Source: Erythrobacter mangrovi (GTDB lineage: Bacteria; Pseudomonadota; Alphaproteobacteria; Sphingomonadales; Sphingomonadaceae). From it: DNA of 64,000 nucleotides. This document shows positions 8,573 to 52,349 of this stretch, piece by piece. Numbering within the stretch: position 1 is the first letter of the stretch; each line of letters begins with the position of its first letter. Under the pieces are notes generated by a model. That model was given only the letters and a program-made list of their open reading frames with translations, was not told the origin of the DNA and made no database searches. The position numbers were made by a program, and so were the translations under genes. Location: NCBI RefSeq assembly GCF_013260645.1, contig NZ_CP053921.1:2994694-3058693 (forward strand), in the 5' to 3' direction.

Positions 8573-8619
8573 AGCAATCCCATTCCATGCGGATAGTGCA
8601 ATGTCCAGGGAAATGGGTT

Positions 8620-8625
8620 TGTCAA
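8620..8625 (-). promoter_or_regulatory. Possible -35 element upstream of the methyltransferase
   Basis: A consensus TTGACA on the - strand lies ~48 bases upstream of the methyltransferase ATG. No clear -10 box is seen at 16-18 bases, so this is only a candidate. Confidence 0.3.
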
Positions 8626-8805
8626 GCAACGGGTTCAGGACCACGCATCGAAAATGACTGACTCCCCGAGCCGGCAAATCGACCGAAAGGAGTGAACCTC
8701 TCACTCTTGAGGCTAACCTCACATCGCTCCGATCCCCCCGAACTCTGGTTCTTCAAACGTTCGAAAGGGGCTGCGCGGACTGGAGCGATTTCGTATGAGA
8801 CGGGC

Positions 8806-9983: not shown

Positions 9984-10124
9984 TTCCTCCTTTGCGAAAT
10001 CGCAGCGGAAGAAGAGTGCAGATTTTCATCGTGGATCAACACGAATCTTTTTTCTCAGATCACTCTTAGGTAATCTGGCAAAACTTTCTTTTTTTCTCAG
10101 ATCATTTTCAACACAAAATATCGC

Positions 10125-18980: not shown

Positions 18981-19019
18981 ATGAAAATTGATTGTCGCAT
19001 GCCCAAGCTCGGCATTTGA
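18981..19019 (+). CDS. Possible 12-codon leader ORF coupled to the flavin oxidoreductase
   Basis: ATG AAA ATT ... ATT TGA encodes MKIDCRMPKLGI and has a strong purine-rich ribosome site (GAGGGGGGC) 4 bases upstream. Its TGA (19017-19019) overlaps a TTG (19016-19018) that opens the next gene. Ribosomes ending here could restart on the TTG. It may instead be the remains of a former start region. Confidence 0.4.
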   Translation: MKIDCRMPKLGI

Positions 19020-21992: not shown

Positions 21993-21994
21993 GT

Positions 21995-24132: not shown

Positions 24133-24142
24133 GGAATTCCGC

Positions 24143-25321: not shown

Positions 25322-26361
25322 TGACCCGCTTCGTCCCAAACTTCTCGACCCAGCAATTGCTCCCGCCCTGGGTCTCGATAGGCGCGCGCAACTGGGTCTT
25401 CGCGATCAAGGTCCCGCATCATTGCCTGCAGGGCTATCTCAACACGCATTTCAACGAGCCTGCCCCGGATTATGCGCCGTTTTACTATGAGGCGCTGGAT
25501 TATCCCTACGGTCTGCTCCGCGTGACCAAGCACACCGACTTCTCCAGCCATTATCGCGGACTTGAAGGGAGGCAGACGCTCAGCAAGATCGACGTCAACT
25601 GGGCCTATCCTGTGTACCGCTGGCGGGTTTCGGATGGAAACATCCGGTACGACCGCAAGACCGTATGGGTCGAGCCGATGAGCTTCGACAATAACAGCTA
25701 CACCATGTTCTCCAGCCGCGAGATCTGGGGCACGGAGTCCGACATGGCGCGGATCGTCGTGGACGAGGAGACCGATCCCAACCGCATGCATATCGACATC
25801 GCCATGCAGGGGTTGCGTACCTTCACGCCCAAGTCCAAGGCGCACCTGATCGGGGTCATGCACATGGAGATGAATCCCGAAGTGAAATCGGACCTGATAC
25901 CCGATCTGGCAAATCACAAGGGGCTGGCCGCATTCGTTGGGGCGCTCTTCGCCAGCGTGGGCCTGAAAGGCGCGCCCGATCTCCATCAGACCAGTGAGGT
26001 CAATACGCTCAAGCAATTCCGCGATGTCTTCAACATGCAGATCGCAGTCTATCGGGCAATTATTGCATCGCGCACCGACCACACCAACGTTACCGACCTG
26101 CAATTCTACAAGGGAAGCGCCGTCACCCTGGATTTCATGTGGTCGCAATCCATGGCAGAGCCGCTGAAGAAACTGTTCGACATCGACAACGATATCCCAG
26201 ATCGATATCCGGTCGGCCATCCCGGCGGATCGGACGAGATCGATGGCAAGGACGTCGATTGGGAGCTTCCTCGAATCCAGAAGGAGGTTGTGCTGGCGGC
26301 ATCCTATACTGCCGACATTCGGTATAACGTGACCGGTACGCTCCACACTTACGGCAATTGA
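25321..26361 (+). CDS. Second acetoacetate decarboxylase-like protein, lysine motif lost
   Basis: The 346-aa protein is related in layout to the preceding gene: an N-terminal WVFAIKVPHHCLQGYLNTHF segment, LRVTKHTDF, and the ADC-type motif reading FSSREIWGTESDMARI at residues ~128-142. The Schiff-base lysine of the GREVxGFPKK motif is replaced there. It may be a non-catalytic partner of the upstream protein or have a different chemistry. It is the last gene of the operon. The TIR-TolB-TPR gene converges on it, with stops 20 bases apart. Confidence 0.6.
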   Translation: MTRFVPNFSTQQLLPPWVSIGARNWVFAIKVPHHCLQGYLNTHFNEPAPDYAPFYYEALDYPYGLLRVTKHTDFSSHYRGLEGRQTLSKIDVNWAYPVYRWRVSDGNIRYDRKTVWVEPMSFDNNSYTMFSSREIWGTESDMARIVVDEETDPNRMHIDIAMQGLRTFTPKSKAHLIGVMHMEMNPEVKSDLIPDLANHKGLAAFVGALFASVGLKGAPDLHQTSEVNTLKQFRDVFNMQIAVYRAIIASRTDHTNVTDLQFYKGSAVTLDFMWSQSMAEPLKKLFDIDNDIPDRYPVGHPGGSDEIDGKDVDWELPRIQKEVVLAASYTADIRYNVTGTLHTYGN

Positions 26362-26381: not shown

Positions 26382-28382
26382 TCAGCCGGCCAGGCGCACG
26401 CTTCGCTTCACCTCCGCCTTGAAATCATAGGGAGTCCAATCGACGCAATCGGGCCAGGCACCGGTTCCTACCCAATAGTCGCACAACCCCAGCCGATGGC
26501 ACAGCTTGATGAAACGGGTGGTCTTGTTGATCTCGCTCCAACGACCAAGCACAATGCCGGGATAGATATCGGCAGGGCGTTCCCCCTCCGGCAGGAAAAT
26601 GTGGTCGAATGAAGCCCTCTCCGCCAGTTCTAGCGCCTCCTCGGTCATTCCCAGGCTAGACACGCTATCAACGATGTTCAGTGCGATAGTGCCGGATTTG
26701 GCCAACATCTGGTTGTAACGGGCCAGGCGCGCGCGCTTCTTTTCTTCATCATCGGACCGCAAAGCCTCGGCATAAAGGCGCGTTTCCAGCAAGGCGTAGG
26801 CCTGCCAGCCATCGAAATACTCGCAATCGTCAACTGCCGCGTCATAAATATCGGGGAAGCCGAGCGTCGCCGAAAAGCCCAGCAGGGACAGGAGGATACC
26901 GGCGTTCTTCGGCCACCGCTCATGCAATTCCGCGAGCATCCTCACAGAGCCTTCGTAATCGCCGACATAGGTTCGCATTTGCGCTACGTGCAGCCTCGCA
27001 GAGGGCATCAGCGGATTTAGCTCGCAGGCCTGTTCGGCCAGCCGCAAGGCTTCGCGGAACCTTCCAACGCTCCAGCAGAAGACGCTCATGTCATTGAGTG
27101 CTTCGGGATCGTGCGGGGCGACGGCCAGCGCCTGCTTAAGCAGTTTCTCGCGGGCATTGTAGGCACCCCACGGCTCGAGCCGCGCCAACGCCAGCAACGC
27201 GCCTGATCGCCGTGGGTCGAGACTTAGCGCAGTGTTGGCGGCATGGATCACACCGTTGCGGCCTTCCTTGAAATCGCCCTTACCGTGCGAGTAGCGCAAG
27301 ATCTTCGACCGCGCGCTGGCGAGCAATTCCCAGCCCAGCGCGAAATCCGGGGCTGAATGGACGACGTCCTCGAGCATGGGTTCTGCCCGGATCGCAGTGT
27401 CGTCGAACTCCGGGTCGCCTTCAGCCAGGATACCGCGTGCCCGCAGAAACTTCTCGTAAATCGCCGGGTCGAGCACTGCAGATTTGGGCGGCGGAGCAAG
27501 CTTGACCTTGAGGGCATCGGCAACCGCTTCGGCGATGTTCTCCTGCAGCGTGAAGACATCGTCGAGATCGCCGTCGAAACGATCCGCCCATAGGGCGTTG
27601 TGAGTGGCGCAATCGACCAGTTCGGCGGATATCCGGACTCGAGACCCGCTGCGTCTAACGGTTCCGTCAAGCAGGTGGCTGGTACCCAACGCGCTCGCCA
27701 CATTGGAGATCGTCTTCTCCTTGCCACGGAACTGGAAGCTCGAAGTGCGAGCCACCACTCGCAGCGTGGTGGAACTGGCAACCGTGCGCTGGATTTCTTC
27801 CGAGACCCCATCGCAGAAATAGGTCAATTCCTCGTCTGAAGAGAGATTGTCGAATGGCAATACCGCGAGCAGCGGTAGCCCATCACCTGGCTGCAGGTTG
27901 GGGACCGAGCGCACTGCTCGGTGCGTGGGCGAGGGAGCGGCAACTCCACGCGGCTCATGCGCGTGTTGCGCCGGCCTGGAAATGAACTTTGCTACGTCCT
28001 GCACAAAGGCGAGCCAGGCCGGATCGTTTGCCTCACCGTTCCAGTGCCCAAGTTCCGCGGTCTGTGTTAGTTCAAACATGACCGGCCTCTCGCAGGGCTC
28101 GATCATGGCCGGCACTAACGTCTTCTTACGATCCGCGATCGTCGCTTCCGCACGTACCCAGCGCGACACCACTGATCGCGGTGACCACAACACGACGACA
28201 GCTTTGGCGGCCTTCAGCGCCGCTTCAGTTACTTCGTCGTAAGCCTCTCCCGATCGCAAGGCCTGATCCCACCAAACAGTGAATCCCTCACGCTCAAGTC
28301 CCTCGGCAAATCTCCGGGCCACCTCCGCATCCTTGCGATTGTAGGAGAGGAAGATATCAGAAATGGCGTGTAATCTCCGCAA
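26382..28382 (-). CDS. TIR domain - TolB-like domain - TPR protein
   Basis: The 666-aa protein has an N-terminal TIR domain (residues ~7-135: DIFLSYNRKDAEVARRF, VVVLWSPRSVVSRWVRAEATIA) with candidate catalytic Glu79. A TolB/FlgO-like N-terminal domain follows (~170-300: LAVLPFDNLSSDEELTYFCDGVSEEI, LDGTVRRSGSRVRISAELVD), then a TPR-type helical region (~330-660). The same order is known from adenylate-cyclase-like signalling proteins. TIR domains of bacteria often cleave NAD+ or make signalling nucleotides; which applies here is not known. The only usable start is TTG 28382, because two in-frame stops lie just upstream. It is a paralogue of the TIR-FHA protein at 46 kb. Confidence 0.85.
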   Translation of the reverse strand: MRRLHAISDIFLSYNRKDAEVARRFAEGLEREGFTVWWDQALRSGEAYDEVTEAALKAAKAVVVLWSPRSVVSRWVRAEATIADRKKTLVPAMIEPCERPVMFELTQTAELGHWNGEANDPAWLAFVQDVAKFISRPAQHAHEPRGVAAPSPTHRAVRSVPNLQPGDGLPLLAVLPFDNLSSDEELTYFCDGVSEEIQRTVASSTTLRVVARTSSFQFRGKEKTISNVASALGTSHLLDGTVRRSGSRVRISAELVDCATHNALWADRFDGDLDDVFTLQENIAEAVADALKVKLAPPPKSAVLDPAIYEKFLRARGILAEGDPEFDDTAIRAEPMLEDVVHSAPDFALGWELLASARSKILRYSHGKGDFKEGRNGVIHAANTALSLDPRRSGALLALARLEPWGAYNAREKLLKQALAVAPHDPEALNDMSVFCWSVGRFREALRLAEQACELNPLMPSARLHVAQMRTYVGDYEGSVRMLAELHERWPKNAGILLSLLGFSATLGFPDIYDAAVDDCEYFDGWQAYALLETRLYAEALRSDDEEKKRARLARYNQMLAKSGTIALNIVDSVSSLGMTEEALELAERASFDHIFLPEGERPADIYPGIVLGRWSEINKTTRFIKLCHRLGLCDYWVGTGAWPDCVDWTPYDFKAEVKRSVRLAG

Positions 28383-29632: not shown

Positions 29633-31549
29633 ATGTCTGATGACATGGCCGAGAATTTTCTGGGCGAGGCACGCCGCCCCAGCCGCACCTACTGCGCGTT
29701 CATAAGCTATTCGCACGATGATCGGGCAAAAGTCTTGCGCCTGCAGTCGCGCTTGGAGCGCTTTCGATTTCCCAGGCAACTCGCTCGGAAACTTGGGTAC
29801 TCCCGCCTGAGGCCCGTGTGCGTTGATCGGTCGGATATGCGGGCTGCGCCGCATTTGGACGATGCGATCAAGGAAGCCCTGGAACGCTCAGACTATCTGA
29901 TCGTGGCCTGCACTCCCAGGACTCCTGCTTCGCATTGGGTGGGCAAGGAGATCGAGTTCTTCCGTGAAATTCGAGGCGACCAACATATCCTGGTTGCATT
30001 GCTCGAAGGCGATGCGCCTGAGTCCTTTCATCCGCAATTGCTTCAAGGCCCAAGCGAAGATCACAAGCAGCCCTTGGCAGCTGACTTTCAACGTGGGGGA
30101 GACGGGCACCACTTCGCCCTGCTGAAGTTGATTGCTTCGCTTTCAGGCGTAGATCTCGACGACCTCGTGCTGCGACACAAGAAGCGTCAACGCGGTTTTC
30201 GGCTGGCGCTGATCTCCGGTGCAGCTACCGCATCGCTGCTCATTGGCTTCCTCGTCTATCGCACATACCAGTCCGGTATTGCGGTTCAGAACGAGCGTAT
30301 CTTCGCGTCGCACGCGATGCAAAGGCAATTGGACGAGCTTCGCAAGGAGGTCCGCGAGGGGGGCACCTTGAATATGGCGGAGGCGATCAACCGCAATGTA
30401 GAACTGTTCTATCAGGGTCAGTCTGCTGACATTGGCGTACCCGAGATCGAGCTCGGCCGAGCGCGTCTGCTTCACGCGAAGGCTGAAACGGATATCTCGG
30501 GACGGGACTTCGACGCCGCAGCAGGCAACGCACGCAAGGCCTGGCAGATTACTTCAAGCCTGCACGCCCGCGAGCCCGACGACCTCAAGATCACATTCAT
30601 GCACGCACAAAGTGCATTTTGGGTAGGATATGCGGCTTGGCTGCAGAGAGATACGCCGCTGGCAGCTGCCTTTTTCGCGCGTTACGCGCAGTTGGCAGAT
30701 GAACTCGCAGCCGCAAGCCCCAACAACAGCGACTATGTGCTCGAACAAGGATATGCATATAGCAACCTTGGGATGATCGCATTGAGGGAAGCGCGAGACC
30801 TGGGCGCTGCCGAAGGGCACTTCGGCTCCTCTCAATCTGCATTTCGAGAAGTGTCGCGCCGAAATCCTGCGGACCTGGACACAAAGTTTGCACTTGCTGA
30901 CGGGGACTCTTGGCTTGCGGATGTCGCGCTATTCCGTGGCGATTACCAATCTGCACAACAATATCGTGACGAACAACGCAGCGCACTCAACGATATACTG
31001 CGAAGCGAGCCACAGAACAGGGCCTATCGGCTGGGATTTCTGGCAAGTCAGATCGGCCAGGCTCGGCTTGAAGCCGCCAAGGGCAATCACAGAGTCGCGC
31101 TGCGACTCCTTCGCTTGGCCGAAGCGGAGGCCGGCGAGCTATTGGCTGGCGACCCCCAGAATCCATCGCTGGCCGAGCGAGTGCGGATAATCAAGCTGTT
31201 CCAGGCTAAGTATGAGTTGGCCACGGGCGCGGCAGACGACTTGCGACGTGCCGAGGATCATATTGCGGACTGCAACAGGGATTGGGTTGTGACACCGGAC
31301 GGCGAACTGCCGGTGTTTTGCAGCTTTCTGAAAGCCTCGCTCATGCTTCGCAAGGGACGCCACGCTATCGCCAAGGACATAATGGCGGATCCCCGCCTCA
31401 CCCCTTGGATTAGCTCTCCATCCCTATCGCCGATCTGGCGTATCGACTTCCAGGAGGAATGCCGCAGCCTCGCCGCGCCCCTACTGTGCAGGATGCATTC
31501 TCGAGAAGCGGGCCCCGCCAAGGCAAGTGCACCTGCTCGTAAGGAGTGA
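29633..31549 (+). CDS. TIR domain membrane protein with TPR-like region
   Basis: This 638-aa protein has an N-terminal TIR-type domain (residues ~18-150: CAFISYSHDDRAKVLRL, SDYLIVACTPRTPASHWVGKEIEFF) with Glu106 at the likely catalytic position. One membrane helix follows (~193-212, LALISGAATASLLIGFLVY), then a long helical TPR-like region with repeated Ala-rich helices. The TIR is predicted inside the cell with the TPR part beyond the membrane, facing the lipoprotein encoded just upstream. The last ~14 residues (AGPAKASAPARKE) are read from the left end of IS6 remnant 3, so the original C terminus has been replaced. Confidence 0.8.
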   Translation: MSDDMAENFLGEARRPSRTYCAFISYSHDDRAKVLRLQSRLERFRFPRQLARKLGYSRLRPVCVDRSDMRAAPHLDDAIKEALERSDYLIVACTPRTPASHWVGKEIEFFREIRGDQHILVALLEGDAPESFHPQLLQGPSEDHKQPLAADFQRGGDGHHFALLKLIASLSGVDLDDLVLRHKKRQRGFRLALISGAATASLLIGFLVYRTYQSGIAVQNERIFASHAMQRQLDELRKEVREGGTLNMAEAINRNVELFYQGQSADIGVPEIELGRARLLHAKAETDISGRDFDAAAGNARKAWQITSSLHAREPDDLKITFMHAQSAFWVGYAAWLQRDTPLAAAFFARYAQLADELAAASPNNSDYVLEQGYAYSNLGMIALREARDLGAAEGHFGSSQSAFREVSRRNPADLDTKFALADGDSWLADVALFRGDYQSAQQYRDEQRSALNDILRSEPQNRAYRLGFLASQIGQARLEAAKGNHRVALRLLRLAEAEAGELLAGDPQNPSLAERVRIIKLFQAKYELATGAADDLRRAEDHIADCNRDWVVTPDGELPVFCSFLKASLMLRKGRHAIAKDIMADPRLTPWISSPSLSPIWRIDFQEECRSLAAPLLCRMHSREAGPAKASAPARKE

Positions 31550-41095: not shown

Positions 41096-43387
41096 ATGAC
41101 CAAGGCCTACAGCAACAAGGCGCTCCCATCTGGAACGATCTTGCGCGAATGGCGCCTCGAGGAGGTGCTCGGCGTGGGCGGCTTCGGGATCGTATACAAG
41201 GGTCGTGGGATCTATTTCGACGAATTGGTCGCGATCAAGGAGTACTTTCCCAGCGCAATCAGTGAGCGGGACGAGGAATCCACCGTCGTCCCGATCGACT
41301 CCGATGCCGAGGAAGTACACGCGCTTGGGCTCAAGAAATTCGTCGAAGAGGCCAAGCTGCTGTGGAATCTTTCTACGCCATCTCGCCATCCCAATATCGT
41401 GAGTGTGCGCAGCCTATTCGAGATCCACGGCACCGCCTACATGGTGATGGACTTCGAAGATGGCGTCTCGCTCACCGATGTAATCAAGCGCGGCGAGAAA
41501 TTCGATGAGGCCAAGCTGCGCGAGATGGTGCTGCCGGTCGCGTCGGGCCTTGAACGCGCGCATCGCGTCGGCGTGTTGCATCGCGACATCAAGCCATCGA
41601 ACATCCTGATCACGGACAGCGGCCAACCGGTCTTGATCGACTTCGGTTCGGCCCGGTTCGAGGCTGAAGGCGTTACCAGCACCACCGTTACGTTCCATAC
41701 GCCGCCTTACGCGGCGATCGAGCAGTACGTGAAGACTTACGAACAAGGACCGTGGACAGACATCTATGCCCTCGGCGTTGTGCTCTATCGGTGCATCACG
41801 GGTGAGAAGCCGGCTGAGGTGCTCGAGCGGCTCCACGGTGAGAAGGAACCCGCCCTGGTCGACGGTAACTGGCCAGGCTACAGCCGCGCGTTCCTGGCGG
41901 CGGTCGATGCAGCCATGATCATCAAGCCGAGCGAGCGGCCGCGCTCACTGTCCGAATGGCTGGCGATGTTCGATGAAGAGGGTACTCAATCGGCCGGCTT
42001 TGCCAGCGACGCTGACGACGAAGACGATGAGGCAACCCGCATTGTCCCGATGGCCAGCGTGATCCCCGAGATCCGTCCGGTCGCGACACCGCCCGTGCCT
42101 TCACCAGAACCGGCAACGCCTGGTGCTGCGGTCCCGGACCCCAGCAAAGCGGTAAAGCCCGCAAAGCGCAGCAAGACAAAAGAGACGGACAGTTCTGCAG
42201 AAGTGGGCGAGAAGGCCGGGCCTGCATCAGGGAACAAGGCGTCTCCGAATGAGAAGTCGAACAAGCCGAAGGAGCCCGTGCCAGCGGCGAAGGCCAGTGA
42301 GGGTCAGCGGGCAAAAGCCGGAGAATCGAAGCTCCTGTCTCGACCGGTGATGCTCGGCGGCGCGGCAACCCTGGCAGTCATCGCGGGGCTTGCCTGGGCG
42401 CTCACCACCCGTGATGCTGATCCGGGTCCAGCCAATGAACCGGTCGCCGCGGTCGAGCAAATCTCGCTTGTCGACGGCTTTGGTCCGGCGCTCGCCAAGC
42501 TTGTGGAACTGGCCCGAGAAAAGAACATAGACCCCAAGTTGGTCAGTTCGCTCGAAGCACGAGCGACGCGGATCGCCAGTCTCGAAACGGAGAATGCCTC
42601 GCTGGCCGATAATCCCGCGCGTGAAGGCGACATCGGTTTCAATCGCTTGCGTATCGCAGATCTCACTCGCGCCAGTCTGGCTGAGCTGGGCGTCGGTCTA
42701 TCGCAAGTCCTGACAGCCAAGACGCGGGGGCTTGTAAATGCGGCGCCGTGGGCCGATCCGCGCAGGCCCAATTCTGCGGCCAAGGAGAGCCCGGCACTGC
42801 AAGAGCAGGCGGCGGCGGTCGCGGAAAGCCTGCGTTCTGCGCGGCAATCTATCGAGGGGCTGCGCGGTTCGAAGTCTGCAGAGGAGGCCTTGCCGCTGGC
42901 CCAGAAGGCCATCCTGGCGGTGGCTGCTTACGACACGGCAGCAGCGCAGGCGCTTAAGGACAATCCGCGCAAGCCAAAGCCCAGTGACACTCCCAAGACG
43001 GAAACATCGGCCAGCAGCAGCCCTTCACCCACCGCCAGTAGCACACAGGTCGTGACCGGCCGGACGGTTGAGCAGATTCGCCAAGAGCTCGATCGCGTTT
43101 CCGATGCGACGGACAGCCAGGCCAACGAAGTGATCAAACTGGCACGGACTCGAGAACCCGGTCGCGATGCGAGCGATGATGCCAAGAAGGCCTTCCAAAC
43201 GCTCGAAAGCAATGCTGGGGCCGCGCGCGATTACAAGCGCTACCTCGACACACTCAAGCGATCGATGCGCGGGGCGAAGACGCCGGCCGAGGCTGAGCAA
43301 TTGCTGGCGCAGGGTCGACAGACCAGCCAATATGTTGGTTCGATGCTGCAAGGCTCGCGCGCGGCGAGGGCAGTCCTCGATCGATAG
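41096..43387 (+). CDS. Ser/Thr protein kinase with single membrane helix
   Basis: The 763-aa protein has an N-terminal eukaryotic-type kinase domain: the glycine loop GVGGFGIVYKG (residues ~26-36), the VAIKE lysine (~48), HRDIKPSNIL (~162-171), DFG (~182), and PPYAAIEQY in the activation segment. A Pro/Ala/Lys-rich linker follows (~310-415), then one membrane helix (PVMLGGAATLAVIAGLAWAL, ~417-436) and a periplasmic helical region (~450-763). No PASTA repeats are seen. It converges on a PP2C phosphatase gene, its expected antagonist, with stops 19 bases apart. Confidence 0.9.
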   Translation: MTKAYSNKALPSGTILREWRLEEVLGVGGFGIVYKGRGIYFDELVAIKEYFPSAISERDEESTVVPIDSDAEEVHALGLKKFVEEAKLLWNLSTPSRHPNIVSVRSLFEIHGTAYMVMDFEDGVSLTDVIKRGEKFDEAKLREMVLPVASGLERAHRVGVLHRDIKPSNILITDSGQPVLIDFGSARFEAEGVTSTTVTFHTPPYAAIEQYVKTYEQGPWTDIYALGVVLYRCITGEKPAEVLERLHGEKEPALVDGNWPGYSRAFLAAVDAAMIIKPSERPRSLSEWLAMFDEEGTQSAGFASDADDEDDEATRIVPMASVIPEIRPVATPPVPSPEPATPGAAVPDPSKAVKPAKRSKTKETDSSAEVGEKAGPASGNKASPNEKSNKPKEPVPAAKASEGQRAKAGESKLLSRPVMLGGAATLAVIAGLAWALTTRDADPGPANEPVAAVEQISLVDGFGPALAKLVELAREKNIDPKLVSSLEARATRIASLETENASLADNPAREGDIGFNRLRIADLTRASLAELGVGLSQVLTAKTRGLVNAAPWADPRRPNSAAKESPALQEQAAAVAESLRSARQSIEGLRGSKSAEEALPLAQKAILAVAAYDTAAAQALKDNPRKPKPSDTPKTETSASSSPSPTASSTQVVTGRTVEQIRQELDRVSDATDSQANEVIKLARTREPGRDASDDAKKAFQTLESNAGAARDYKRYLDTLKRSMRGAKTPAEAEQLLAQGRQTSQYVGSMLQGSRAARAVLDR

Positions 43388-43405
43388 ACGACCCCAGCGA
43401 GTCCG

Positions 43406-44119
43406 TTAGCAGACGCGTACCACGACTACGCTGACGTTGTCTGGTGCACCGCGCGACAGAACCGTCTCGACCAGTTCCTCGCACGCCTGTGCGGGATTTC
43501 CCGACGTCACCGTTTTGCAAATCTCTTCCGCCTCGACACAGCGGGTAAGGCCGTCGCTGGCGAGGACAAAAATGTCGTTAGGCTGTGCAATCTCGACCAC
43601 ATGATCGATTTCGAGCACTTTGTCGGCCCCGACTGCGCGAGTGATTACGTTGGCATCCGGATGATGAGCGGCATCCTCTGGAGATATCAGCCGGTTGTCG
43701 ATCAGTTTCTGTACCAGTGAATGATCGCGCGTGATCTGCGTAATCTGGCCGCCCCGTATGTGATAGGCGCGACTGTCCCCTACCCAGAAACAGAAGTAGC
43801 GCCCATCGTCGGCCACGACCAAGCCGACCGCCGTACTGCCCATCTTGCGTAGCCGGTCGCCGGCCATCATCTCGACCATGGCGGAGTTGGCCTGCTGGAG
43901 GGCTTCCTCGACTTGCCGCAAGGCCGGTCCCAGTTCGATCTCGGTGACCGACTGCTCGATCGCCTCGACGACCATAGCGCTCGCAACTTCGCCGGATTCG
44001 TGCCCTCCCATTCCATCGGCCACGACCCAGATCGATCGATCGGCTCGGTCGAGCAGTGCGTCTTCGTTGAGCTTGCGCTTCAGGCCAACATCGGTGCGAC
44101 TGGCAGAATGAAAGCGCAT
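43406..44119 (-). CDS. PP2C-family Ser/Thr protein phosphatase
   Basis: The 237-aa protein has the PP2C metal-binding and catalytic motifs: RTDVGLKRKLNEDALL (motif 1 region), IWVVADGMGGHESGEVAS, GSTAVGLVV, FWVGDSRAYHI, ILASDGL-like FVLASDGLTRCV, and the closing APDNVSVVVVRV. It should remove phosphate from Ser/Thr of proteins, most likely targets of the convergent kinase, in the style of PppA or Stp1. A longer frame extends upstream, but the ATG at 44119 begins at the first PP2C strand. The 124 bases to the next gene hold nothing visible. Confidence 0.92.
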   Translation of the reverse strand: MRFHSASRTDVGLKRKLNEDALLDRADRSIWVVADGMGGHESGEVASAMVVEAIEQSVTEIELGPALRQVEEALQQANSAMVEMMAGDRLRKMGSTAVGLVVADDGRYFCFWVGDSRAYHIRGGQITQITRDHSLVQKLIDNRLISPEDAAHHPDANVITRAVGADKVLEIDHVVEIAQPNDIFVLASDGLTRCVEAEEICKTVTSGNPAQACEELVETVLSRGAPDNVSVVVVRVC

Positions 44120-44243
44120 TGTCCGAGTCCCCCCACGGCCCCAATTATCTTGTTGGCCTAGCTTATCCCGCATTTCACAAAGGCTGCAATGATGATGGCA
44201 CCAGTGTGCCGGCCTTGAACGTGTGGAACCGGGCTTCGGCGGG

Positions 44244-46028
44244 TCAGGCAGGAACCTCGAGCGACCTCTCACTATATGTCGTGGTCCACTCGTTGAGGTC
44301 CGCTAGCATGATGTAAGACGTCACCTGCAATTCTGCCGCGAGGTCTTCGATGTCGTCCAATTCGTCCAGCCGCCTCGCATTTTCGCGTAGCGCAGCGGCC
44401 GATTCCGCCGAACGGTTGGCCTGGAGCAAATGCTCGCCATGACCGCGCATTCCGAAGATGGCCGCCCCCGCGGCAGGAAGTCCCGCAGTGAGAAAGACGA
44501 TCACTGGCGTCATCGAATGCACGATATCCGGCACCGTGTAATAGCCCATGATGAACAGCACGCAGGTTGCGATGACCGCTCCCATCAGGAAGTTCCCAAC
44601 CTCATGCAATCGGTGGTCCAGCTTGCGCATCCGCCTGGCGTTGACGTCGTGATATTCCGCCTGGGGGATGACCTGCTCCTTGATCGCCGCCTGGGCCAGC
44701 TCCTTGACCTGCGCGTGCGACATCTCGCCACCCGGGCTTGCCATCTCGCGCCAGATTGCGGCGGTGTACCAGCGCGTCCAGTCGGTCCCTGCTTCCTTGC
44801 GATGAGCGCCAGAAATCAGATCGCTGCGGAACGGTGGGCCGGTAAGCCCGACGCGCTTGAGGTAAAGTAGCGGACGCAAGGACTCCGCCAAGTGCCTGTA
44901 TTGGAGCCAGCGCCGGTGCCAGTCACCCTTCTTGCCTGCTGAAGTGTTGTAGAACAGCGCCCCAATGAGCAGCAGCTCGAGCATCACCAGGTAGACCTTG
45001 AGTGCCGGGGCCAACAGGCCCGTCAGCGCTACGATCACGGCAAGCGCCGAAAGCGCATAATTGGTGATGTGGCCGGACCGAAAGCGTTGGGCGTACCGGA
45101 TCGCAAGGAAGTTGGCCCAGCCATAGCCGCGTTCGAGCGGCATTCTCAGCGAGGGTGGATATTGTTCGCGGATCACTGAGCGGTCCCGCTCAATGTCTGC
45201 GGAGATCGCATCCTGACGCCACGGGTGCGATGGCAGCGACTTCACTCCCAACATCGCCAACATGAGGGGATACTCGATCCGAAGATTTGTCCGGTTTTCG
45301 ACTTCCCGGAAATATTCGAGAATATGGAGCCGCTCGATCCTTTCGTGCGGCGCCAGGATGTTTGCCAGCAGTGCGGTATAATCATCCAGCGTATCGAGCT
45401 GGCCGAGTTCGGGTTCGGCGATGTCGCCGCCCACAATCAACCTGACAGTCGAGGCTTCGACCTTGTTCCGATCGATGTGCAAGTGAATGACCGGAACGCC
45501 GTCGCGCAGCGCCAGTTCCACGACATGGGCCGTGCCGCCAGGTCCGTTGCCTGGTTCGCCGTCCCAGATGGCTACGATGACATCCGAGGCGGCGATGACG
45601 GCCTTGCCGACGAGCACATAGGCGTCGCTGGCAGAGCGGTCTCCGGGCAATGTCATGACATTGTCGGCGTCTTCGAGGTATTCCGTGAACTCGTCGAGTT
45701 CCGCGCCGACGAAGTCTTGGGAGTATTCCGAAACCTTGAAAGGCAACAGCGCGCGCAGCTGATAGCCGTTCGCACGGGCGCTTTGCGCTGCAATCTGATC
45801 AGACCCCGTCGCTAAGGGCGTGTGGAGGCGTATGATCGGTTCGACTTCGTCGAACAGGGCGTGTTCGCGACGATGCAACTCATACGCAGCGAGCTTCAGG
45901 TTGGAGAATATGTGGTCAAGTCGTTCGCGAACCGGACCGAACAGGTCCTCGCCAAGCGCTTTTGCTCGATGCCCGGTGATGCCGACATTGAGGGCAAGCC
46001 TCGGGCGGGGAGGATGGCTTTGGTCCAA
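44244..46028 (-). CDS. SLOG-like nucleotide-binding domain fused to four membrane segments
   Basis: The 594-aa protein has an N-terminal Rossmann-like domain (residues ~12-190) with VGITGHRAKALG, TPLATGSDQIAAQSARANGY and ASDVIVAIWDGEPGNGPGGTAHVVELAL, matching the SLOG/LOG-type nucleotide-binding families of conflict systems. Two membrane pairs follow (~330-370 and ~490-535), which suggests a SLATT-like 2TM effector arrangement. Proteins of this type are thought to sense a nucleotide and perturb the membrane. It is 10 bases downstream of the TIR-FHA gene in one operon. Confidence 0.7.
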   Translation of the reverse strand: MDQSHPPRPRLALNVGITGHRAKALGEDLFGPVRERLDHIFSNLKLAAYELHRREHALFDEVEPIIRLHTPLATGSDQIAAQSARANGYQLRALLPFKVSEYSQDFVGAELDEFTEYLEDADNVMTLPGDRSASDAYVLVGKAVIAASDVIVAIWDGEPGNGPGGTAHVVELALRDGVPVIHLHIDRNKVEASTVRLIVGGDIAEPELGQLDTLDDYTALLANILAPHERIERLHILEYFREVENRTNLRIEYPLMLAMLGVKSLPSHPWRQDAISADIERDRSVIREQYPPSLRMPLERGYGWANFLAIRYAQRFRSGHITNYALSALAVIVALTGLLAPALKVYLVMLELLLIGALFYNTSAGKKGDWHRRWLQYRHLAESLRPLLYLKRVGLTGPPFRSDLISGAHRKEAGTDWTRWYTAAIWREMASPGGEMSHAQVKELAQAAIKEQVIPQAEYHDVNARRMRKLDHRLHEVGNFLMGAVIATCVLFIMGYYTVPDIVHSMTPVIVFLTAGLPAAGAAIFGMRGHGEHLLQANRSAESAAALRENARRLDELDDIEDLAAELQVTSYIMLADLNEWTTTYSERSLEVPA

Positions 46029-46038
46029 GGAGCCTCGG

Positions 46039-46968
46039 TCAACTCAAATCGGCTAGTTCGCGGACGCGGTGCGTCAGAACGACATCGCCCAGCATCAATT
46101 CGGAATTGGGCGGCAGCACGGTAGGCGCCTCGATCCGCTGGCCATCGATGAATGTTCCATTGGTCGACTGGAGATCGGTTACCAGCATTTCGCCGTCGCG
46201 CACCTCGACTTCGCAGTGGCGGCGTGAAATGCGCTTGTCGGCAAAGATGATGTCCGAAGGTGCTGCCCGACCGAGTTTGGCCCCCAGGATACCGATCGGG
46301 TGACGAACAAGTGGATCGTCAGCCGGGCCCACCTCAAGACAGTGAACCTCAGAGTTGGTGTGGAGCTGGGCATCGGATCGCGTGTAAAAAGCGGTCTGTT
46401 CGGTTTCTGAATCCGGTTGCGGCAACGTAGCCGGCCGAACCGCGGACGGAGCCTCATTGGCGGCCGTCCTTGCAGTTTCTGGTCTGCGCGTGAATGGGAT
46501 GCCATCAGAGGCATCGTCAGCAAGCAGAAACCCTCTGGCCCGCGACGCAGGTACCGACGGTTCCTCGTCATTTGGCGCGACCAGAAGGCGAATGTCGGCG
46601 ATGAGGCGTTGCCAATCGTCAGCACCGCGATCGCCGTCCCATTCAGACAGGTCGGTGGAATGGGTGAGTTCGAAGATTATGGGCAGGTCACACTTCTCGA
46701 TAATCACCGGTACGAAGATGTGACGCTTGTCGGCGAGGGTGGCTTCGGCGCGGACCCAGCGCGATGAAACGGACCGGGGGGACCACAGCACCACTGCGGC
46801 CTTTGCCGCACGCAGCTTCTGCTCGATCACCTCGTCGAATGACTCTCCCGAATGGATGGCCGCGTCCCACCAGACGGAAAAACCTTCGCTTTCCAGGAGC
46901 ATCGCAAAGCGCTTGGCCGCATTGCGGTCCTCACGGCTGTACGAAACGAATATGTCATGCCCCCGCAC
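46039..46968 (-). CDS. TIR - FHA domain protein
   Basis: The ~309-aa protein has an N-terminal TIR domain (HDIFVSYSREDRNAAKRF, VVLWSPRSVSSRWVRAEATL, candidate catalytic Glu75) and a linker. Its C-terminal FHA domain has GILGAKLGR, RISRRHCEVEV and STNGTFIDGQRI, the phosphothreonine-binding residues. An FHA domain next to a Ser/Thr kinase and a PP2C phosphatase implies that the TIR activity or location is controlled by phosphorylation. The GTG at 46968 has AAGGGA 7 bases upstream; a TTG at 47013 is also open. The TIR part is closely similar to that of the 26.4-28.4 kb protein. Confidence 0.82.
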   Translation of the reverse strand: MRGHDIFVSYSREDRNAAKRFAMLLESEGFSVWWDAAIHSGESFDEVIEQKLRAAKAAVVLWSPRSVSSRWVRAEATLADKRHIFVPVIIEKCDLPIIFELTHSTDLSEWDGDRGADDWQRLIADIRLLVAPNDEEPSVPASRARGFLLADDASDGIPFTRRPETARTAANEAPSAVRPATLPQPDSETEQTAFYTRSDAQLHTNSEVHCLEVGPADDPLVRHPIGILGAKLGRAAPSDIIFADKRISRRHCEVEVRDGEMLVTDLQSTNGTFIDGQRIEAPTVLPPNSELMLGDVVLTHRVRELADLS

Positions 46969-48364: not shown

Positions 48365-48559
48365 CCGAGGCTCCGGCCGCAAAATGACGGCTTGATTGCT
48401 CGCGACTACCGCATCCGCCGTCAATCGTTCGATTTCCGGGGCGGCCGCTAAGCGATGTGCTCCACGGTCCGGTATATTGCTGTATTCGGCTGCCTATTTG
48501 GGGGGTATAGCAGAGCTCAGTATTCCCTTAGAGCCTCAATTGAGATCGGAGGCATGGCC

Positions 48560-49942
48560 ATGTCGCACGCACAAGAGCCGTCACTGACCTTTCTCGGTGC
48601 GACCGGAACCGTGACCGGGTCGCGCTATCTTGTCGAAGCCGGGGGGCAGCGATTGCTCGTCGATTGCGGGCTGTTCCAGGGCTACAAGCAGCTTCGGCTT
48701 CGGAATTGGAATCCGTTCCCCGTGGACCCGAAGAGCATCTCGGCCGTGCTCCTTACCCATGCGCATCTAGACCATTCGGGCTATCTTCCCGCACTGGTGC
48801 GAAACGGCTTCAGTGGTCCAATTTATGCCACAACCTCCACGGTCGAATTGTGCGAGTTGCTGCTGCTCGACAGCGCGCATTTGCAGGAGGAAGAGGCTGG
48901 ATATGCGCGGCGCAAGGCATTCTCAAGGCATCGCGACCCCAAGCCGCTTTATACGCTGGATGACGCACAGGCTGCACTCGAGAGGTTCGAGCCCGTGTCC
49001 TTCGAACAGGACCTCGACATCGGCGAGGGCTTGGGCGCCCGTTTCATCCCCGCAGGGCATCTCTTGGGGGCTGCTTCTATCCACCTGTCCGTGGCTGGGC
49101 GTACGGTCCACTTCAGTGGCGATATCGGGCGCCCTTCGGACGCTATCATGCGTGACCCGCATCCTTTCCCGGGGGCGGATATCCTGATCGTCGAATCCAC
49201 CTATGGCAATCGCAGCCATCCGCATGTGGACGCCGAATCCGAGCTGGAGGAGGTGATCAATCGCGTCGCAAAGCGCGGAGGAACAATCCTGGTTCCCGCC
49301 TTCGCCGTCGGAAGGGTTCAAGCAGTGATGCTGCACATCGCCCGACTGCGCGCACGCGGCGCGATTCCACCCATACCAGTGTACCTCAACACGCCGATGG
49401 GGGTGAACGCGACCCGGATATATCACCGCCACCACGAAGAACACGAAGTCAGCCGCGGGGAATGCAAGGCGATGTTCGAGCTCGCCCAACGGGTGCGAAC
49501 GGTCGAGGAATCGAAAGCGCTCAACCGCGACAAAGAACCCAAGATCATCATTTCGGCCAGCGGGATGCTGTCAGGCGGCAGAATTCTCCATCATGTCGTG
49601 AGCTTCGGTGACGACCCGCGCAACGCGATTGTGCTCTCGGGCTTCCAGGCTGGAGGAACGCGCGGCGCGGCGCTCGTCCGCGGAGATCGAACGCTCAGGA
49701 TATTTGGCCGGGATGTGCCCATCGCCGCCGAGGTGGTCCAGCTTGAGGCGCTCTCCGGCCATGCCGACACAGATGAGCTCCTCGCATGGATGGGCGATGC
49801 TCCGCCACCCAGCATGACCTATGTCACGCACGGAGAGCCTGAGGCGGCGGATGCCTTGCGCTTCAGGGTAGACCATGAACTTGGCTGGAACGTTCGTGTT
49901 CCCGAACACCTCGAGCGCATCAATATCATGGCGCCCGAATGA
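48560..49942 (+). CDS. Metallo-beta-lactamase/beta-CASP RNase family protein
   Basis: The 460-aa protein has the MBL ligands THAHLDHSG (residues ~63-71), a histidine in IPAGHLLGAASI, FSGDIGRPSD, and the beta-CASP signatures DILIVESTYGNRSHP, TILVPAFAVGRVQAVM, IIISASGMLSGGR and LSGHADTDELLAWM (RMMBL). This is the YSH1/CPSF73-type RNA exonuclease family. ATG 48560 was chosen because GGAGG is 7 bases upstream; an ATG at 48554 is too close. It overlaps the phosphorylase gene by four bases. Confidence 0.9.
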   Translation: MSHAQEPSLTFLGATGTVTGSRYLVEAGGQRLLVDCGLFQGYKQLRLRNWNPFPVDPKSISAVLLTHAHLDHSGYLPALVRNGFSGPIYATTSTVELCELLLLDSAHLQEEEAGYARRKAFSRHRDPKPLYTLDDAQAALERFEPVSFEQDLDIGEGLGARFIPAGHLLGAASIHLSVAGRTVHFSGDIGRPSDAIMRDPHPFPGADILIVESTYGNRSHPHVDAESELEEVINRVAKRGGTILVPAFAVGRVQAVMLHIARLRARGAIPPIPVYLNTPMGVNATRIYHRHHEEHEVSRGECKAMFELAQRVRTVEESKALNRDKEPKIIISASGMLSGGRILHHVVSFGDDPRNAIVLSGFQAGGTRGAALVRGDRTLRIFGRDVPIAAEVVQLEALSGHADTDELLAWMGDAPPPSMTYVTHGEPEAADALRFRVDHELGWNVRVPEHLERINIMAPE

Positions 49943-51450
49943 GCACCGACATTCATTCGATCCCATTGGTTCGGGCAGGCATCGATACCTATCGCCAGCC
50001 TGTCGTCTACATGAGGGAGGACTGCCACCTGTGCCGGGCGGAAGGGTTCAACTCGCTGACGCGGATCGAGATCACGGTTCGGGATCGAACCATCATCGCC
50101 CTACTGAACGTTGTGACCAGCGCTGACTGGTTGCCGTCCGACACCGCCGCGCTCAGCGAGGCGGCATGGGAGCGGTTGGGTACGCGCCCAGGGGATACGG
50201 GGTCTTTCCGCCATCCCGAGCCTGCGCACAGCGCCTCAATCATTCGCGGCAAGGTCTATGGCGAAAAACTCGACAAGGTCGAGTTCAGGAAAATTGTAGA
50301 CGACGTCATCTCCTACCGCCTTTCTGATCTGGATATTGCCGCTTTCATTACCGCATGCGCCGGCCAGCGCCTGGACGTGAAGGAGACGCTGGCCCTGACG
50401 CAGGCGATGCAGGAATCCGGCCAGACCCTCGACTGGGGTGACCGGCTGGTGCTCGACAAACACTGTGTCGGCGGCGTTCCGGGTAATCGCACCACTCCCA
50501 TCATCGTGGCGATCGCCGCTGCCGCCGGTTTCTGGATTCCCAAGACATCGAGCAGGGCGATTACGTCCCCGGCCGGCACCGCCGATACCATGGAAGTGAT
50601 GACCCCGGTCGCGCTCGGAATCACCGAGTTGCGCCGCGTGGTCGAGCAGGAGGGTGGGTGTCTGGTATGGGGAGGGGGGCTGGACCTTAGCCCCGCCGAT
50701 GACCTGCTTATCAGGATTGAGCGACCGCTTGATTTCGACAGTGACGGTCAACTCGTCGCGAGCGTGCTTTCGAAAAAGGCGGCCGCAGGTTCGAACCATG
50801 TCCTGATCGATATGCCTGTGGGATCGACGGCCAAGGTCCGTTCGCCCAAGGCCGCTCGTTCCCTCTCCAATCGCATGAGTGCCGTGGCGCGGGGGCTGGG
50901 AATGAATCTCAGCATCCACCAGAGCGATGGGGCTGCCCCTGTGGGGTGGGGCATCGGGCCTGCACTTGAGGCAACCGACGTCCTGTCGGTCCTTAGGCTG
51001 GAGGCCGGCGCTCCGGTCGACCTCCGGGAACATTCGCTGGACCTTGCTGGCATGCTTATCGACCTTGCTCGACCGGGGCGCGAAGGAGGCCGGAGACTGG
51101 CTGAAGAACTGCTCGACGATGGACGGGCGTGGGCGAAATTCCTGGCCATCTGCGAGGCGCAGGGCGGGTTTCATGAACCAGGCATCGCCCGTTTTCGTGC
51201 AGAGGAGCAAGCAACACGTACAGGTTGGGTCACGGCGATCGATAACCGCCGGATCAGCCGGATCGCCAAGCTGGCGGGCGCCCCGGGCCGGAAAACGGCC
51301 GGGGTGCGTGTCCATAAACGGCTGGGCGAGATGGTGGAGAAGGGTGAGCCGCTCTTTGAAATCCACGCCGAAACCATCGGGGAGTTGGAATGGGCCAGTG
51401 AATTTGCCCGATCGCAGGCCCCGACCTACGAGATAGGTGAGGCGCCATGA
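49939..51450 (+). CDS. Thymidine/AMP phosphorylase family protein (archaeal-type length)
   Basis: The 503-aa protein carries the nucleoside phosphorylase II core (TLALTQAMQESGQTLDW, DKHCVGGVPGNRTTPIIVAIAAAAGFWIPKTSSRAITSPAGTADTMEVM). It also has the N-terminal extension of ~80 residues found in the archaeal AMP phosphorylase group. Bacterial DeoA is ~440 aa, so this fits the 503-aa AMP phosphorylase/putative thymidine phosphorylase class, which converts NMP plus phosphate to base and ribose-1,5-bisphosphate. It is coupled by ATGA overlaps to the RNase upstream and the PRPP synthase downstream, forming an RNA-to-PRPP type salvage unit (inference). Confidence 0.82.
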   Translation: MSTDIHSIPLVRAGIDTYRQPVVYMREDCHLCRAEGFNSLTRIEITVRDRTIIALLNVVTSADWLPSDTAALSEAAWERLGTRPGDTGSFRHPEPAHSASIIRGKVYGEKLDKVEFRKIVDDVISYRLSDLDIAAFITACAGQRLDVKETLALTQAMQESGQTLDWGDRLVLDKHCVGGVPGNRTTPIIVAIAAAAGFWIPKTSSRAITSPAGTADTMEVMTPVALGITELRRVVEQEGGCLVWGGGLDLSPADDLLIRIERPLDFDSDGQLVASVLSKKAAAGSNHVLIDMPVGSTAKVRSPKAARSLSNRMSAVARGLGMNLSIHQSDGAAPVGWGIGPALEATDVLSVLRLEAGAPVDLREHSLDLAGMLIDLARPGREGGRRLAEELLDDGRAWAKFLAICEAQGGFHEPGIARFRAEEQATRTGWVTAIDNRRISRIAKLAGAPGRKTAGVRVHKRLGEMVEKGEPLFEIHAETIGELEWASEFARSQAPTYEIGEAP

Positions 51451-52349
51451 CGCTGATACTTGCCTTCCCCGGGATGGAAGGACTGGCAGGCGGTATCGCC
51501 AACGAAGCAGGCTGCGACTGGCACCCGATTGATCTTCATCGCTTCCCTGACGGAGAGAGCCTCGTCACGCTTCCGGACCAACTCGCTGGCCAGGACGTAG
51601 CAATCCTGGCGACCTTGCGTGATCCTGACCGGCTTGCGCTGCAGCTGTTGTTTGCCGCCTCGACAGCGCGGGACTTGGGTGCGCGGAGCGTCGGTCTCGC
51701 TGCCCCCTACATGGGCTATATGCGCCAGGACAGCCGGTTCGAGGCCGGACAGGCCGTGAGCGCCCCGATCTTCGCGCGCTTTCTCGAACAAAGCTTCGAC
51801 TGGGTGGTCACCGCCGACCCTCACCTCCATCGACATGCTTCGCTCGACCAACTCTTCGCCATCCCCGCTCTGCGGATCGAAGCCGCTCCGCTGATTGCCG
51901 AATGGATCGGCCAGAACGTCCCCGATGCCGTGTTGATCGGTCCGGACAGCGAGAGCCGACAATGGGTCGAGCGAATTGCTTCGCTCAGTTCACGACCGTT
52001 CGAGATCTGGGAAAAGCGTCGGACCGGTGATCGGCAGGTGGCGGTCTCCCGTCCAGATGGGCATGATCGCCCATTCGGTACGCCCGTAGTCGTCGATGAC
52101 ATCGTTTCGACCGGTCACACGATGATGGACGTCATCAGGCAATTGCTTGCTGCCGGCTGGAAATCGCCAGTCTGCGTGATCACCCACGCTGTCTTTGCGG
52201 ATCAAGCGCAGGAGGATCTGTTGGCAAGTGGTGCGGCACGGATCGTCTCGACCGATTCCATACCGCACGAGACAAACGCGATTTCGCTCTGTGCTCCGCT
52301 GGCCAGGGGTATTGTACAGCTGGCCGATGGCGCCCGGAGCAGGCGCTAG
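51447..52349 (+). CDS. prs: Ribose-phosphate pyrophosphokinase family protein
   Basis: The 300-aa protein has the Prs fold: FPDGESLVTLPDQLAGQDVAILATL, APYMGYMRQD (flexible catalytic region), TADPHLHRHASL (PP loop region), DSESRQWVERIA, and the PRPP-binding loop VVVDDIVSTGHTM. It makes PRPP from ribose-5-phosphate and ATP or acts on a related sugar phosphate. It is slightly shorter than housekeeping Prs (~315 aa), and several regulatory residues differ. A special role with the upstream phosphorylase is therefore likely and it may not be the main Prs of the cell. Confidence 0.85.
   Translation: MTLILAFPGMEGLAGGIANEAGCDWHPIDLHRFPDGESLVTLPDQLAGQDVAILATLRDPDRLALQLLFAASTARDLGARSVGLAAPYMGYMRQDSRFEAGQAVSAPIFARFLEQSFDWVVTADPHLHRHASLDQLFAIPALRIEAAPLIAEWIGQNVPDAVLIGPDSESRQWVERIASLSSRPFEIWEKRRTGDRQVAVSRPDGHDRPFGTPVVVDDIVSTGHTMMDVIRQLLAAGWKSPVCVITHAVFADQAQEDLLASGAARIVSTDSIPHETNAISLCAPLARGIVQLADGARSRR

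What the first reader, a model, noticed from the sequence alone, without database searches (positions are those of the whole stretch)
41096..46968. Kinase, PP2C, SLOG-membrane protein and TIR-FHA protein: phosphorylation-gated conflict system
The kinase, PP2C phosphatase and FHA trio recalls the threonine-phosphorylation control of type VI secretion (PpkA/PppA/Fha), but no secretion genes are present. Here the FHA domain is joined to a TIR domain, and a SLOG domain fused to membrane helices completes the set. This suggests an immune or cell-suicide circuit in which phosphorylation controls TIR nucleotide signalling to a membrane effector.
Basis: inference. Interest (0 to 1): 0.78.

Follow-up and report, generated by a model that had tools for sequence, protein, structure and literature searches.

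The report
Phospho-gated TIR-to-membrane signalling module
A bacterial gene cluster appears to wire a protein kinase and phosphatase to an enzyme of the kind used in innate immunity and to a membrane protein that could open in response, suggesting a cell-protection or cell-suicide switch controlled by phosphorylation, which has not yet been tested in the laboratory.

Summary
A membrane Ser/Thr kinase (41096-43387 +) converges on co-directional genes for TIR-FHA, a SLOG-plus-membrane-helix (SLATT-like) protein and PP2C (46968-43406 -). The association is not random: in 249 family genomes the kinase family and its FHA partner occur in the same 10, always adjacent (9 partners are TIR-FHA, one is FHA-SpoIIE); the SLOG-membrane gene is adjacent in 6 of 10. 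The full set recurs in 12 non-redundant loci in several gene orders. The TIR keeps its catalytic-type Glu and the FHA its pThr-binding residues. New here: the kinase linker holds a Thr present in all 119 other listed homologs ([DE]-x-T-R-hydrophobic), the TIR-FHA linker a similar Thr (113 of 118; [DE]-x-T-Q-F-Y); both partly resemble tails bound by the FHA domains of GarA, OdhI and DgcB. Best reading: phosphorylation drives FHA-pThr assembly of the TIR, a TIR-made NAD-derived signal is sensed by SLOG, the membrane helices open, PP2C resets. The wiring is well supported; the signal, direction of control and anti-phage role are inference. SLOG-membrane relatives often sit beside other TIR genes. 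Not Thoeris, T6SS control or KKP by the features tested. New variant of a known kind.

The parts
41096..43387 (+). Ser/Thr protein kinase (763 aa): cytoplasmic kinase domain, acidic/Pro-rich linker, one TM helix, presumed periplasmic C-terminal part
   Evidence: Pfam PF00069 E 9e-37; start shared with homologs; TM by hydropathy 418-436; HRDIKP and DFG motifs visible in the sequence
42035..42037 (+). Kinase T314 in DDEDDEATRIV, candidate phosphothreonine docking site for the FHA domain
   Evidence: Thr in all 120 listed kinases, the window's own included (119 of 119 others), the only invariant column of the linker (median column identity 0.34); motif [DE]xT[RKQ]hyd in 103 of 120 versus mean 3.3 in shuffles
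42347..42403 (+). Kinase transmembrane helix (residues 418-436)
   Evidence: hydropathy scan
43406..44119 (-). PP2C-type Ser/Thr phosphatase (Stp1/IreP-like)
   Evidence: PF00481 E 3e-15; NCBIfam Stp1 219 bits, just under the cut-off of 230; start set by homologs such as L049 and L047
44244..46028 (-). SLOG-SLATT-like membrane protein (594 aa, TTG start), predicted nucleotide-gated effector
45351..45998 (-). SLOG (Rossmann) domain, residues 11-226
44448..45056 (-). membrane part: hydrophobic helices at residues 325-343, 345-363, 477-495, 509-527
   Evidence: hydropathy; SLATT_1 E 1.6e-7 at 449-581; 19 of 23 aligned members match SLATT_1 at E <= 0.01
46039..46968 (-). TIR-FHA fusion protein (309 aa, GTG start)
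   Evidence: TIR_2 E 2e-23, FHA E 1e-18; the 120 listed best homologs (of 2103 at E <= 1e-20, the window's own among them) all carry both Pfam domains
46744..46746 (-). TIR catalytic-type Glu (E90 in 324-aa numbering) in SRWVRAE
   Evidence: invariant in 42 aligned sequences; lines up with the Glu of AbTIR and three other TIR proteins of known structure
46393..46395 (-). TIR-FHA T207 (324-aa numbering) in ETEQTAFYT, candidate phosphothreonine ligand of the FHA domain
   Evidence: Thr in 113 of 118 other aligned proteins; [DE]xTx-hyd-hyd in the linker of 91 of 119 listed proteins versus mean 2.3 in shuffles
46087..46278 (-). FHA domain (residues 246-309) with invariant G248 R249 S263 H266 N285

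Best explanation
A phosphorylation-gated TIR signalling module, probably an immune or dormancy/suicide switch. Steps. (1) The membrane kinase is activated, or PP2C is inhibited, by an unknown trigger (inferred). (2) The kinase phosphorylates T314 in its own juxtamembrane linker and T207 in TIR-FHA (inferred; both Thr are strikingly conserved). (3) The FHA domain binds these pThr residues, docking TIR-FHA on the membrane kinase and linking TIR-FHA molecules in trans, so that the TIR domains assemble and become active (inferred, by analogy with the FHA-gated cyclase DgcB). (4) The TIR makes an NAD-derived nucleotide (catalytic-type Glu present; activity and product unknown). (5) The SLOG domain of the membrane protein binds it and the SLATT-like helices permeabilise or depolarise the membrane (inferred). 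(6) PP2C resets the system (inferred). Shown: gene set, domain anatomy, recurrent linkage, conserved catalytic and binding residues, conserved Thr motifs.
For: Co-occurrence of the kinase with an FHA partner (same 10 of 249 genomes, adjacent in all). The full set is in 12 non-redundant loci in several gene orders. A TIR domain lies within the fetched stretch, about 9 kb either side, of SLOG-membrane genes in 28 of 40 stretches, against about 0.7% expected per stretch. TIR Glu and FHA residues invariant. Thr motifs far above shuffles, with acidic -2 and hydrophobic +2 as in the self-bound FHA tails of DgcB, GarA and OdhI described in PMC6733907. In L092 the FHA is fused to a SpoIIE phosphatase instead of TIR, yet keeps DQTQIV before the FHA and DDDDATRIV in its kinase. 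The SLOG domain matches YpsA strongly and ThsA and TRPM2 more weakly. The two flanking genes tested are absent from 3 of 4 and 4 of 4 congeners, and those 4 also lack this kinase and TIR-FHA, so the region is accessory.
Confidence: 0.5

Rival explanations
1. Same parts, opposite sign: phosphorylation keeps TIR-FHA off. pT207 is bound in cis by the FHA (as in GarA/OdhI) or TIR-FHA is held on the kinase; when a phage or stress blocks the kinase, or PP2C wins, TIR-FHA is freed and activates the membrane effector. The kinase is then the guarded antitoxin.
For: T207 lies some 15 residues before the first FHA strand, and GarA and OdhI have self-binding tails before their FHA. Kinase-phosphatase balance acts as a toxin/antitoxin in KKP (PMC11341870 passages), though there the kinases are the toxin.
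Against: In the closest architectural analogue, an FHA fused to a messenger-making enzyme (DgcB), pThr binding is proposed to activate. Linker lengths vary from 56 to 127 residues, which does not demand a fixed cis contact of the TIR.
Confidence: 0.22
2. A non-immune envelope or ion-homeostasis regulator: the kinase senses a periplasmic condition and uses a TIR-made nucleotide to tune membrane permeability or potential, in many genomes together with a K+-channel-like protein.
For: Kinase has one TM and a C-terminal region with conserved stretches. A channel-like gene (PF07885 in the one member scanned) lies beside SLOG in 7 of the 13 loci that hold TIR-FHA and SLOG. No relatives in viral contigs.
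Against: Patchy distribution (kinase in 10 of 249 genomes), absence from congeners and TIR use fit conflict systems better (inference). The channel gene is absent from this cluster; the genome has only a 34% relative far away.
Confidence: 0.2
3. TIR acts only as a protein scaffold or simple NAD-depleting suicide enzyme and the SLOG-membrane protein is an independent neighbour.
For: TIR-FHA, kinase and PP2C occur without the SLOG protein in L089-L091. SLOG proteins also pair with other TIR proteins. The best fold matches of the TIR are animal receptor TIRs.
Against: TIR-FHA and SLOG are contiguous and co-directional in 10 of the 13 loci that hold both, 10 bp apart here. Of the 13 named loci with a close SLOG relative, 11 show a TIR domain nearby, L039 has only the FHA part at a contig edge and L048 shows none.
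Confidence: 0.15
4. Remnant or variant of type VI secretion threonine-phosphorylation control (PpkA/PppA/Fha).
For: Same three domain types (recalled); one homolog carries the source label 'predicted component of type VI protein secretion system' (P0234).
Against: No VipB in the genome; FHA scores 39.9 bits against a cut-off of 120.25 for TagH; I recognised no T6SS gene in the neighbour lists, but most neighbours were not scanned.
Confidence: 0.02

Closest known systems
Thoeris (ThsB TIR + ThsA SIR2-SLOG, or TM-macro ThsA)
   Same: TIR signal maker plus a nucleotide-sensing effector; SLOG sensor domain in one class and TM effector in the other (PMC11204291 abstract and passages)
   Different: Here SLOG is joined directly to SLATT-like membrane helices, with no SIR2 or macro domain, and the TIR is fused to FHA beside a kinase and phosphatase; no PADLOC model matches the SLOG protein at E <= 1
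SLATT conflict systems predicted by Aravind and co-workers
   Same: SLATT 2TM domain predicted as nucleotide-responsive pore-forming effector (PMC7159879 passages); TIR-SLATT gene pairs in firmicute phages (PMC9503650 passages)
   Different: No kinase + PP2C + TIR-FHA + SLOG-SLATT set was seen in the passages shown. The 2015 founding paper is recalled and was not readable here
Bdellovibrio DgcB (FHA-GGDEF)
   Same: FHA fused to a nucleotide-messenger enzyme; a Thr in its own tail is the proposed activating ligand; tail with Glu -2 and hydrophobic +2/+3 (PMC6733907 abstract and passages)
   Different: Enzyme is GGDEF, not TIR; its kinase is unidentified, whereas here kinase and phosphatase are encoded alongside; +1 Ser and hydrophobic -3 of the DgcB tail are not shared
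KKP (PfkA/PfkB kinases + PfpC phosphatase)
   Same: Ser/Thr kinase-PP2C module with an FHA domain in anti-phage defence (PMC11341870 abstract and passages)
   Different: KKP has two kinases, with CSD and FHA fused to them, and mostly lies in prophages; no TIR is mentioned in that paper (0 occurrences)
T6SS PpkA/PppA/Fha threonine phosphorylation pathway
   Same: Membrane kinase, PP2C, FHA adaptor (recalled; abstracts in listing)
   Different: No VipB in the genome; FHA fused to TIR
GarA/OdhI with PknB/PknG
   Same: FHA domain with a nearby self-binding Thr tail
   Different: Those regulate metabolic enzymes; no TIR (recalled)
TRPM2 channel
   Different: Different membrane part, eukaryotic; the match is modest and shows fold only

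Membership tests
Thoeris | TIR protein with catalytic Glu | tested here: met
   E90 invariant in 42 sequences, aligned with the Glu of AbTIR; that this Glu is catalytic is recalled
Thoeris | ThsA effector (SIR2-SLOG or TM-macro) | tested here: not met
   No PADLOC model matches the SLOG protein at E <= 1; no SIR2 or macro domain in Pfam
Thoeris | SLOG or macro nucleotide sensor fold in the effector | tested here: met
Thoeris | TIR-made cADPR-type signal activating the effector | not testable with these tools
   needs biochemistry
SLATT effector family | curated SLATT profile match | tested here: inconclusive
   SLATT_1 E 1.6e-7, 31.3 bits versus 41 cut-off; 19 of 23 aligned members match at E <= 0.01
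SLOG superfamily (YpsA-like) | SLOG Rossmann fold | tested here: met
FHA phosphothreonine-binding domain | conserved G-R, S, H, N ligand residues | tested here: met
   G248 R249 S263 H266 N285 invariant
Type VI secretion threonine phosphorylation pathway | presence of T6SS sheath gene | tested here: not met
   PF05943 absent from the genome
Type VI secretion threonine phosphorylation pathway | TagH/Fha-type FHA protein | tested here: not met
   39.9 bits versus cut-off 120.25
KKP | two kinases, one CSD-fused and one FHA-fused, plus PP2C | tested here: not met
   one kinase without CSD or FHA domain in Pfam; definition
TerY-P triad | vWA protein with kinase and PP2C (recalled) | tested here: not met
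   no vWA domain in the four proteins
Anti-phage defence system | protection against phage | not testable with these tools

The most novel reading that the evidence does not exclude
A new class of bacterial immune switch in which a kinase/phosphatase pair sets a pThr-FHA polymerisation threshold for a TIR enzyme, whose NAD-derived product opens a SLOG-gated membrane pore (a bacterial analogue in logic of TRPM2). Its arms are exchangeable: TIR-FHA or FHA-SpoIIE as the FHA arm; SLOG-SLATT with or without a K+-channel-like protein, or possibly a TPR-S/cyclase protein, as the accompanying arm.
Probability: 0.35. Interest if true: 0.82.

Novelty: new variant of a known kind. Interest (0 to 1): 0.62.

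Why it matters
TIR immune enzymes are usually thought to be switched on by direct sensing and oligomerisation (recalled). A reversible kinase/PP2C/FHA layer in front of a TIR would link bacterial Ser/Thr phosphorylation to NAD-based immunity, with two precise, mutable Thr sites to test. The SLOG-membrane arm would test the prediction that SLATT proteins are nucleotide-gated pores.

Tried and rejected
Rejected: T6SS control (TagH score); Thoeris, KKP and TerY-P membership (see Membership tests). Random neighbourhood.

Led nowhere: phages, plasmids and viral contigs as carriers (TIR-FHA: plasmids and viral contigs, none; SLOG: phages and viral contigs, none, plasmids, partial matches in 3 records; TIR-FHA was not run against the phage records). 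phmmer of the SLOG protein against PDB sequences: none at E <= 1. Foldseek gave no match at E <= 0.001 for the SLOG protein, so its SLOG assignment rests on the VIA second look, whose matches to the membrane part (ABC transporters, OprM) are generic helical ones. TIR-FHA outside the family: in 385 genomes of the class (at least 4 others of them from the own family; at most 5 candidates scored each; E <= 1e-30) only the own genome gave a match reaching the FHA part. SLOG relatives occur in 5 genomes besides the own, of 289; in one (G466) a TIR match lies beside it, in G252 the TIR match is on another contig.

Not in print: searches (open PMC library; capped listings of titles and abstract starts: 20 of 23, 7 of 7, 20 of 36,612, 15 of 60, 1 of 1, 0 of 0, 12 of 106) showed no paper describing TIR-FHA with kinase, PP2C and SLOG-SLATT; the terms 'TIR-FHA'/'FHA-TIR' gave 0 papers. 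The 2015 SLOG/SLATT paper by Burroughs and co-workers (recalled) is not held, so prior listing of such a cluster cannot be excluded.

Limits of counts: the 40 SLOG stretches were picked by me, mostly the stronger matches of the 62 matching genomes, where a match of any strength (E <= 1e-3) counts; G020 is used twice, one is the own genome's second copy, and several are cut by contig ends. My first count was 29 of 40 with whole-protein queries; with TIR-domain queries it is 28, because in L069 the TIR domain lies just outside the stretch. The TIR density null assumes even spacing. Only the best 120 of 501, 2103 and 1257 homologs were listed, each of the last two lists including the window's own protein; one TIR-FHA protein under 251 aa (P0142) was dropped before the motif counts. 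Hmmscan covered selected neighbours only.
Full report
WHAT IS THERE. The window is the last 64 kb of a 3.06 Mb single-contig genome. Named relatives of its proteins are Erythrobacteraceae/Sphingomonadaceae. Four genes fill 41096-46968. A 763-aa kinase is on the plus strand. Convergent to it, on the minus strand, lie TIR-FHA, then 10 bp later a 594-aa SLOG-membrane protein, then PP2C. Two flanking genes were tested in four congeners at E <= 1e-30: an MBL-fold-like protein at 48455 is missing from 3 of 4 and an NDH-2-like protein at 36474 from 4 of 4 (both names from sequence inspection only). The same four lack this kinase and TIR-FHA. So the cluster sits in an accessory region.

IT IS A REAL UNIT. 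In 249 genomes of the family, the kinase family (E <= 1e-70) is in 10. The genomes with a match that reaches the FHA part of TIR-FHA are the same 10, and in all 10 kinase, PP2C and partner are adjacent. Nine partners are TIR-FHA. The tenth (G178, L092) is FHA fused to a SpoIIE phosphatase domain. The SLOG-membrane gene is adjacent in 6 of the 10 (G000, G058, G138, G221, G232, G234). Adding titled contigs, the full set is seen in 12 non-redundant loci: window, L036, L038, L039, L042, L043, L044, L045, L047, L049, L076, L079. L051 and L052 were dropped as repeats of L043 and L045; the kinase of L036 and the TIR part of L039 are cut off by an edge. L040 has TIR-FHA, SLOG and PP2C without a kinase nearby. 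Gene order and orientation differ: the kinase is next to SLOG, next to PP2C or next to TIR-FHA, and SLOG runs with TIR-FHA and contiguous to it in 10 of the 13 loci that hold both, not in L047, L076 and L079. Conserved company with changing order argues for function, not mere inheritance of a segment. In 385 class genomes only the own genome gave a match to both TIR and FHA parts (capped as told under Tried and rejected).

TWO OVERLAPPING ASSOCIATIONS. The SLOG-membrane family is wider than the trio: some match in 62 of 249 family genomes. A TIR domain lies within the fetched stretch in 28 of 40. In 99 family genomes there are 117 TIR_2 matches, 1.2 per genome, so a 20-kb stretch should hold one in under 1% of cases; even at five per genome it would be 3%. 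Of the 13 titled loci with close SLOG relatives 11 show a TIR domain, L039 is cut and L048 shows none. The other TIR partners scanned are TIR-TPR proteins. A small protein with the K+-channel domain PF07885 in the member scanned lies beside SLOG in 7 of 13 TIR-FHA/SLOG loci and beside other SLOG genes. It is absent from this cluster, and the genome has only a 34% relative elsewhere. In L089 and L090, which lack SLOG, the gene next to TIR-FHA is co-directional; in L089 it was scanned and is a TPR-S/cyclase protein, and L090's looks similar in sequence.

THE NEW CLUE: TWO CONSERVED THREONINES. In the kinase linker between kinase domain and membrane (median column identity 0.34), T314, in an acidic run followed by Arg and a hydrophobic residue, is Thr in all 120 listed kinases, one being the window's own. 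It is the only invariant column; five other positions reach 0.90 or more (P347, P328, G359, F355, I326). The TIR-FHA linker is predicted disordered (pLDDT under 50) with median identity 0.24, yet T207 is Thr in 113 of 118 other proteins and the best column; P173 follows at 0.87. The motif [DE]-x-T-x-hydrophobic-hydrophobic occurs in 91 of 119 listed proteins against 2.3 expected from shuffles; [DE]-x-T-[RKQ]-hydrophobic in the kinase in 103 of 120 against 3.3. Misses: 28 of 119 and 17 of 120 depart from these strict forms. In L092, where TIR is replaced by SpoIIE, the FHA protein still has DQTQIV before the FHA and its kinase DDDDATRIV. The paper on DgcB describes its self-bound FHA tail, compared with OdhI and GarA, as having Glu at -2, Ser at +1 and hydrophobic residues at -3, +2 and +3, and proposes from structures and a constitutively active mutant that phosphorylation of that tail activates the cyclase (PMC6733907, abstract and passages). 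The motifs here share -2 and +2, and in TIR-FHA +3, but not -3 or the +1 Ser.

MECHANISM. Shown: the parts, their linkage, their conserved active and binding residues, the Thr motifs. Inferred: kinase phosphorylates both Thr; FHA-pThr contacts gather TIR-FHA at the membrane and in trans; assembled TIR cleaves NAD; the SLOG domain reads the product; SLATT-like helices open; PP2C resets. Precedents: SLOG of ThsA reads a cADPR isomer, and TM-macro ThsA is suggested to act on membranes (PMC11204291 abstract and passages); SLATT was predicted to be an ADPr-regulated membrane effector and is found beside TIR genes in phages (PMC9503650 passages; see also PMC7159879 passages); kinase/PP2C balance can drive anti-phage toxicity (KKP, PMC11341870 abstract and passages). 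The sign of control is the weakest step: a repressive FHA-pT207 contact is the main rival. An immune role is likely from the parts but rests on no phenotype, and no relative was found in the viral collections searched.

VERDICT. Its idea is the best available and survives the two of its own tests that can be run on a computer; it is refined here by the Thr motifs, the wider TIR/SLOG pairing and the exchangeable arms. It resembles Thoeris in logic but is not a member by the effector feature tested. New variant of a known kind.

Noticed in passing
window 26382-28382 (-) and 29633-31549 (+): Two further TIR proteins within 20 kb: a TIR-TPR protein whose TIR is 53% identical to that of TIR-FHA, and a TIR protein with AFISYSH near its start like those found next to SLOG genes in other genomes.
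   Followed up: partly
G000:C1:2845318-2851813 (L085): A second, distant SLOG-membrane gene in the same genome, about 2.6 kb from another TIR gene.
   Followed up: partly
L036, L038-L040, L042, L043, L049: A small K+-channel-like protein (PF07885 in the relative scanned, filter-like TLGIGD/TLGLGD in the four members printed) sits beside the SLOG gene, on the opposite strand; absent in the window.
   Followed up: partly
L089:10144-11922 and L090:10076-11866: In loci without SLOG, a co-directional gene lies next to TIR-FHA; in L089 it encodes a TPR-S/nucleotide cyclase protein, a possible alternative partner.
   Followed up: partly
L092:8890-10110: FHA fused to a SpoIIE-type phosphatase takes the place of TIR-FHA beside the same kinase and PP2C.
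   Followed up: yes
window 3887-10607: tRNA-Ser followed by a low-GC stretch with a double-HATPase protein, a receiver-domain protein, a C5 cytosine methylase and an IS1595-type transposase: looks like a separate mobile or defence island.
   Followed up: no
window 18992-26361: Flavoprotein (amine-oxidase-like) and polyprenyl synthetase genes; relatives of the flavoprotein lie beside SLOG genes in L068, L069, L081 and L083.
   Followed up: no
window 48455-52349: MBL-fold-like (by eye), pyrimidine-nucleoside-phosphorylase-like and PRPP-synthetase-like genes in a row, next to the module; the first is absent from 3 of 4 congeners.
   Followed up: no
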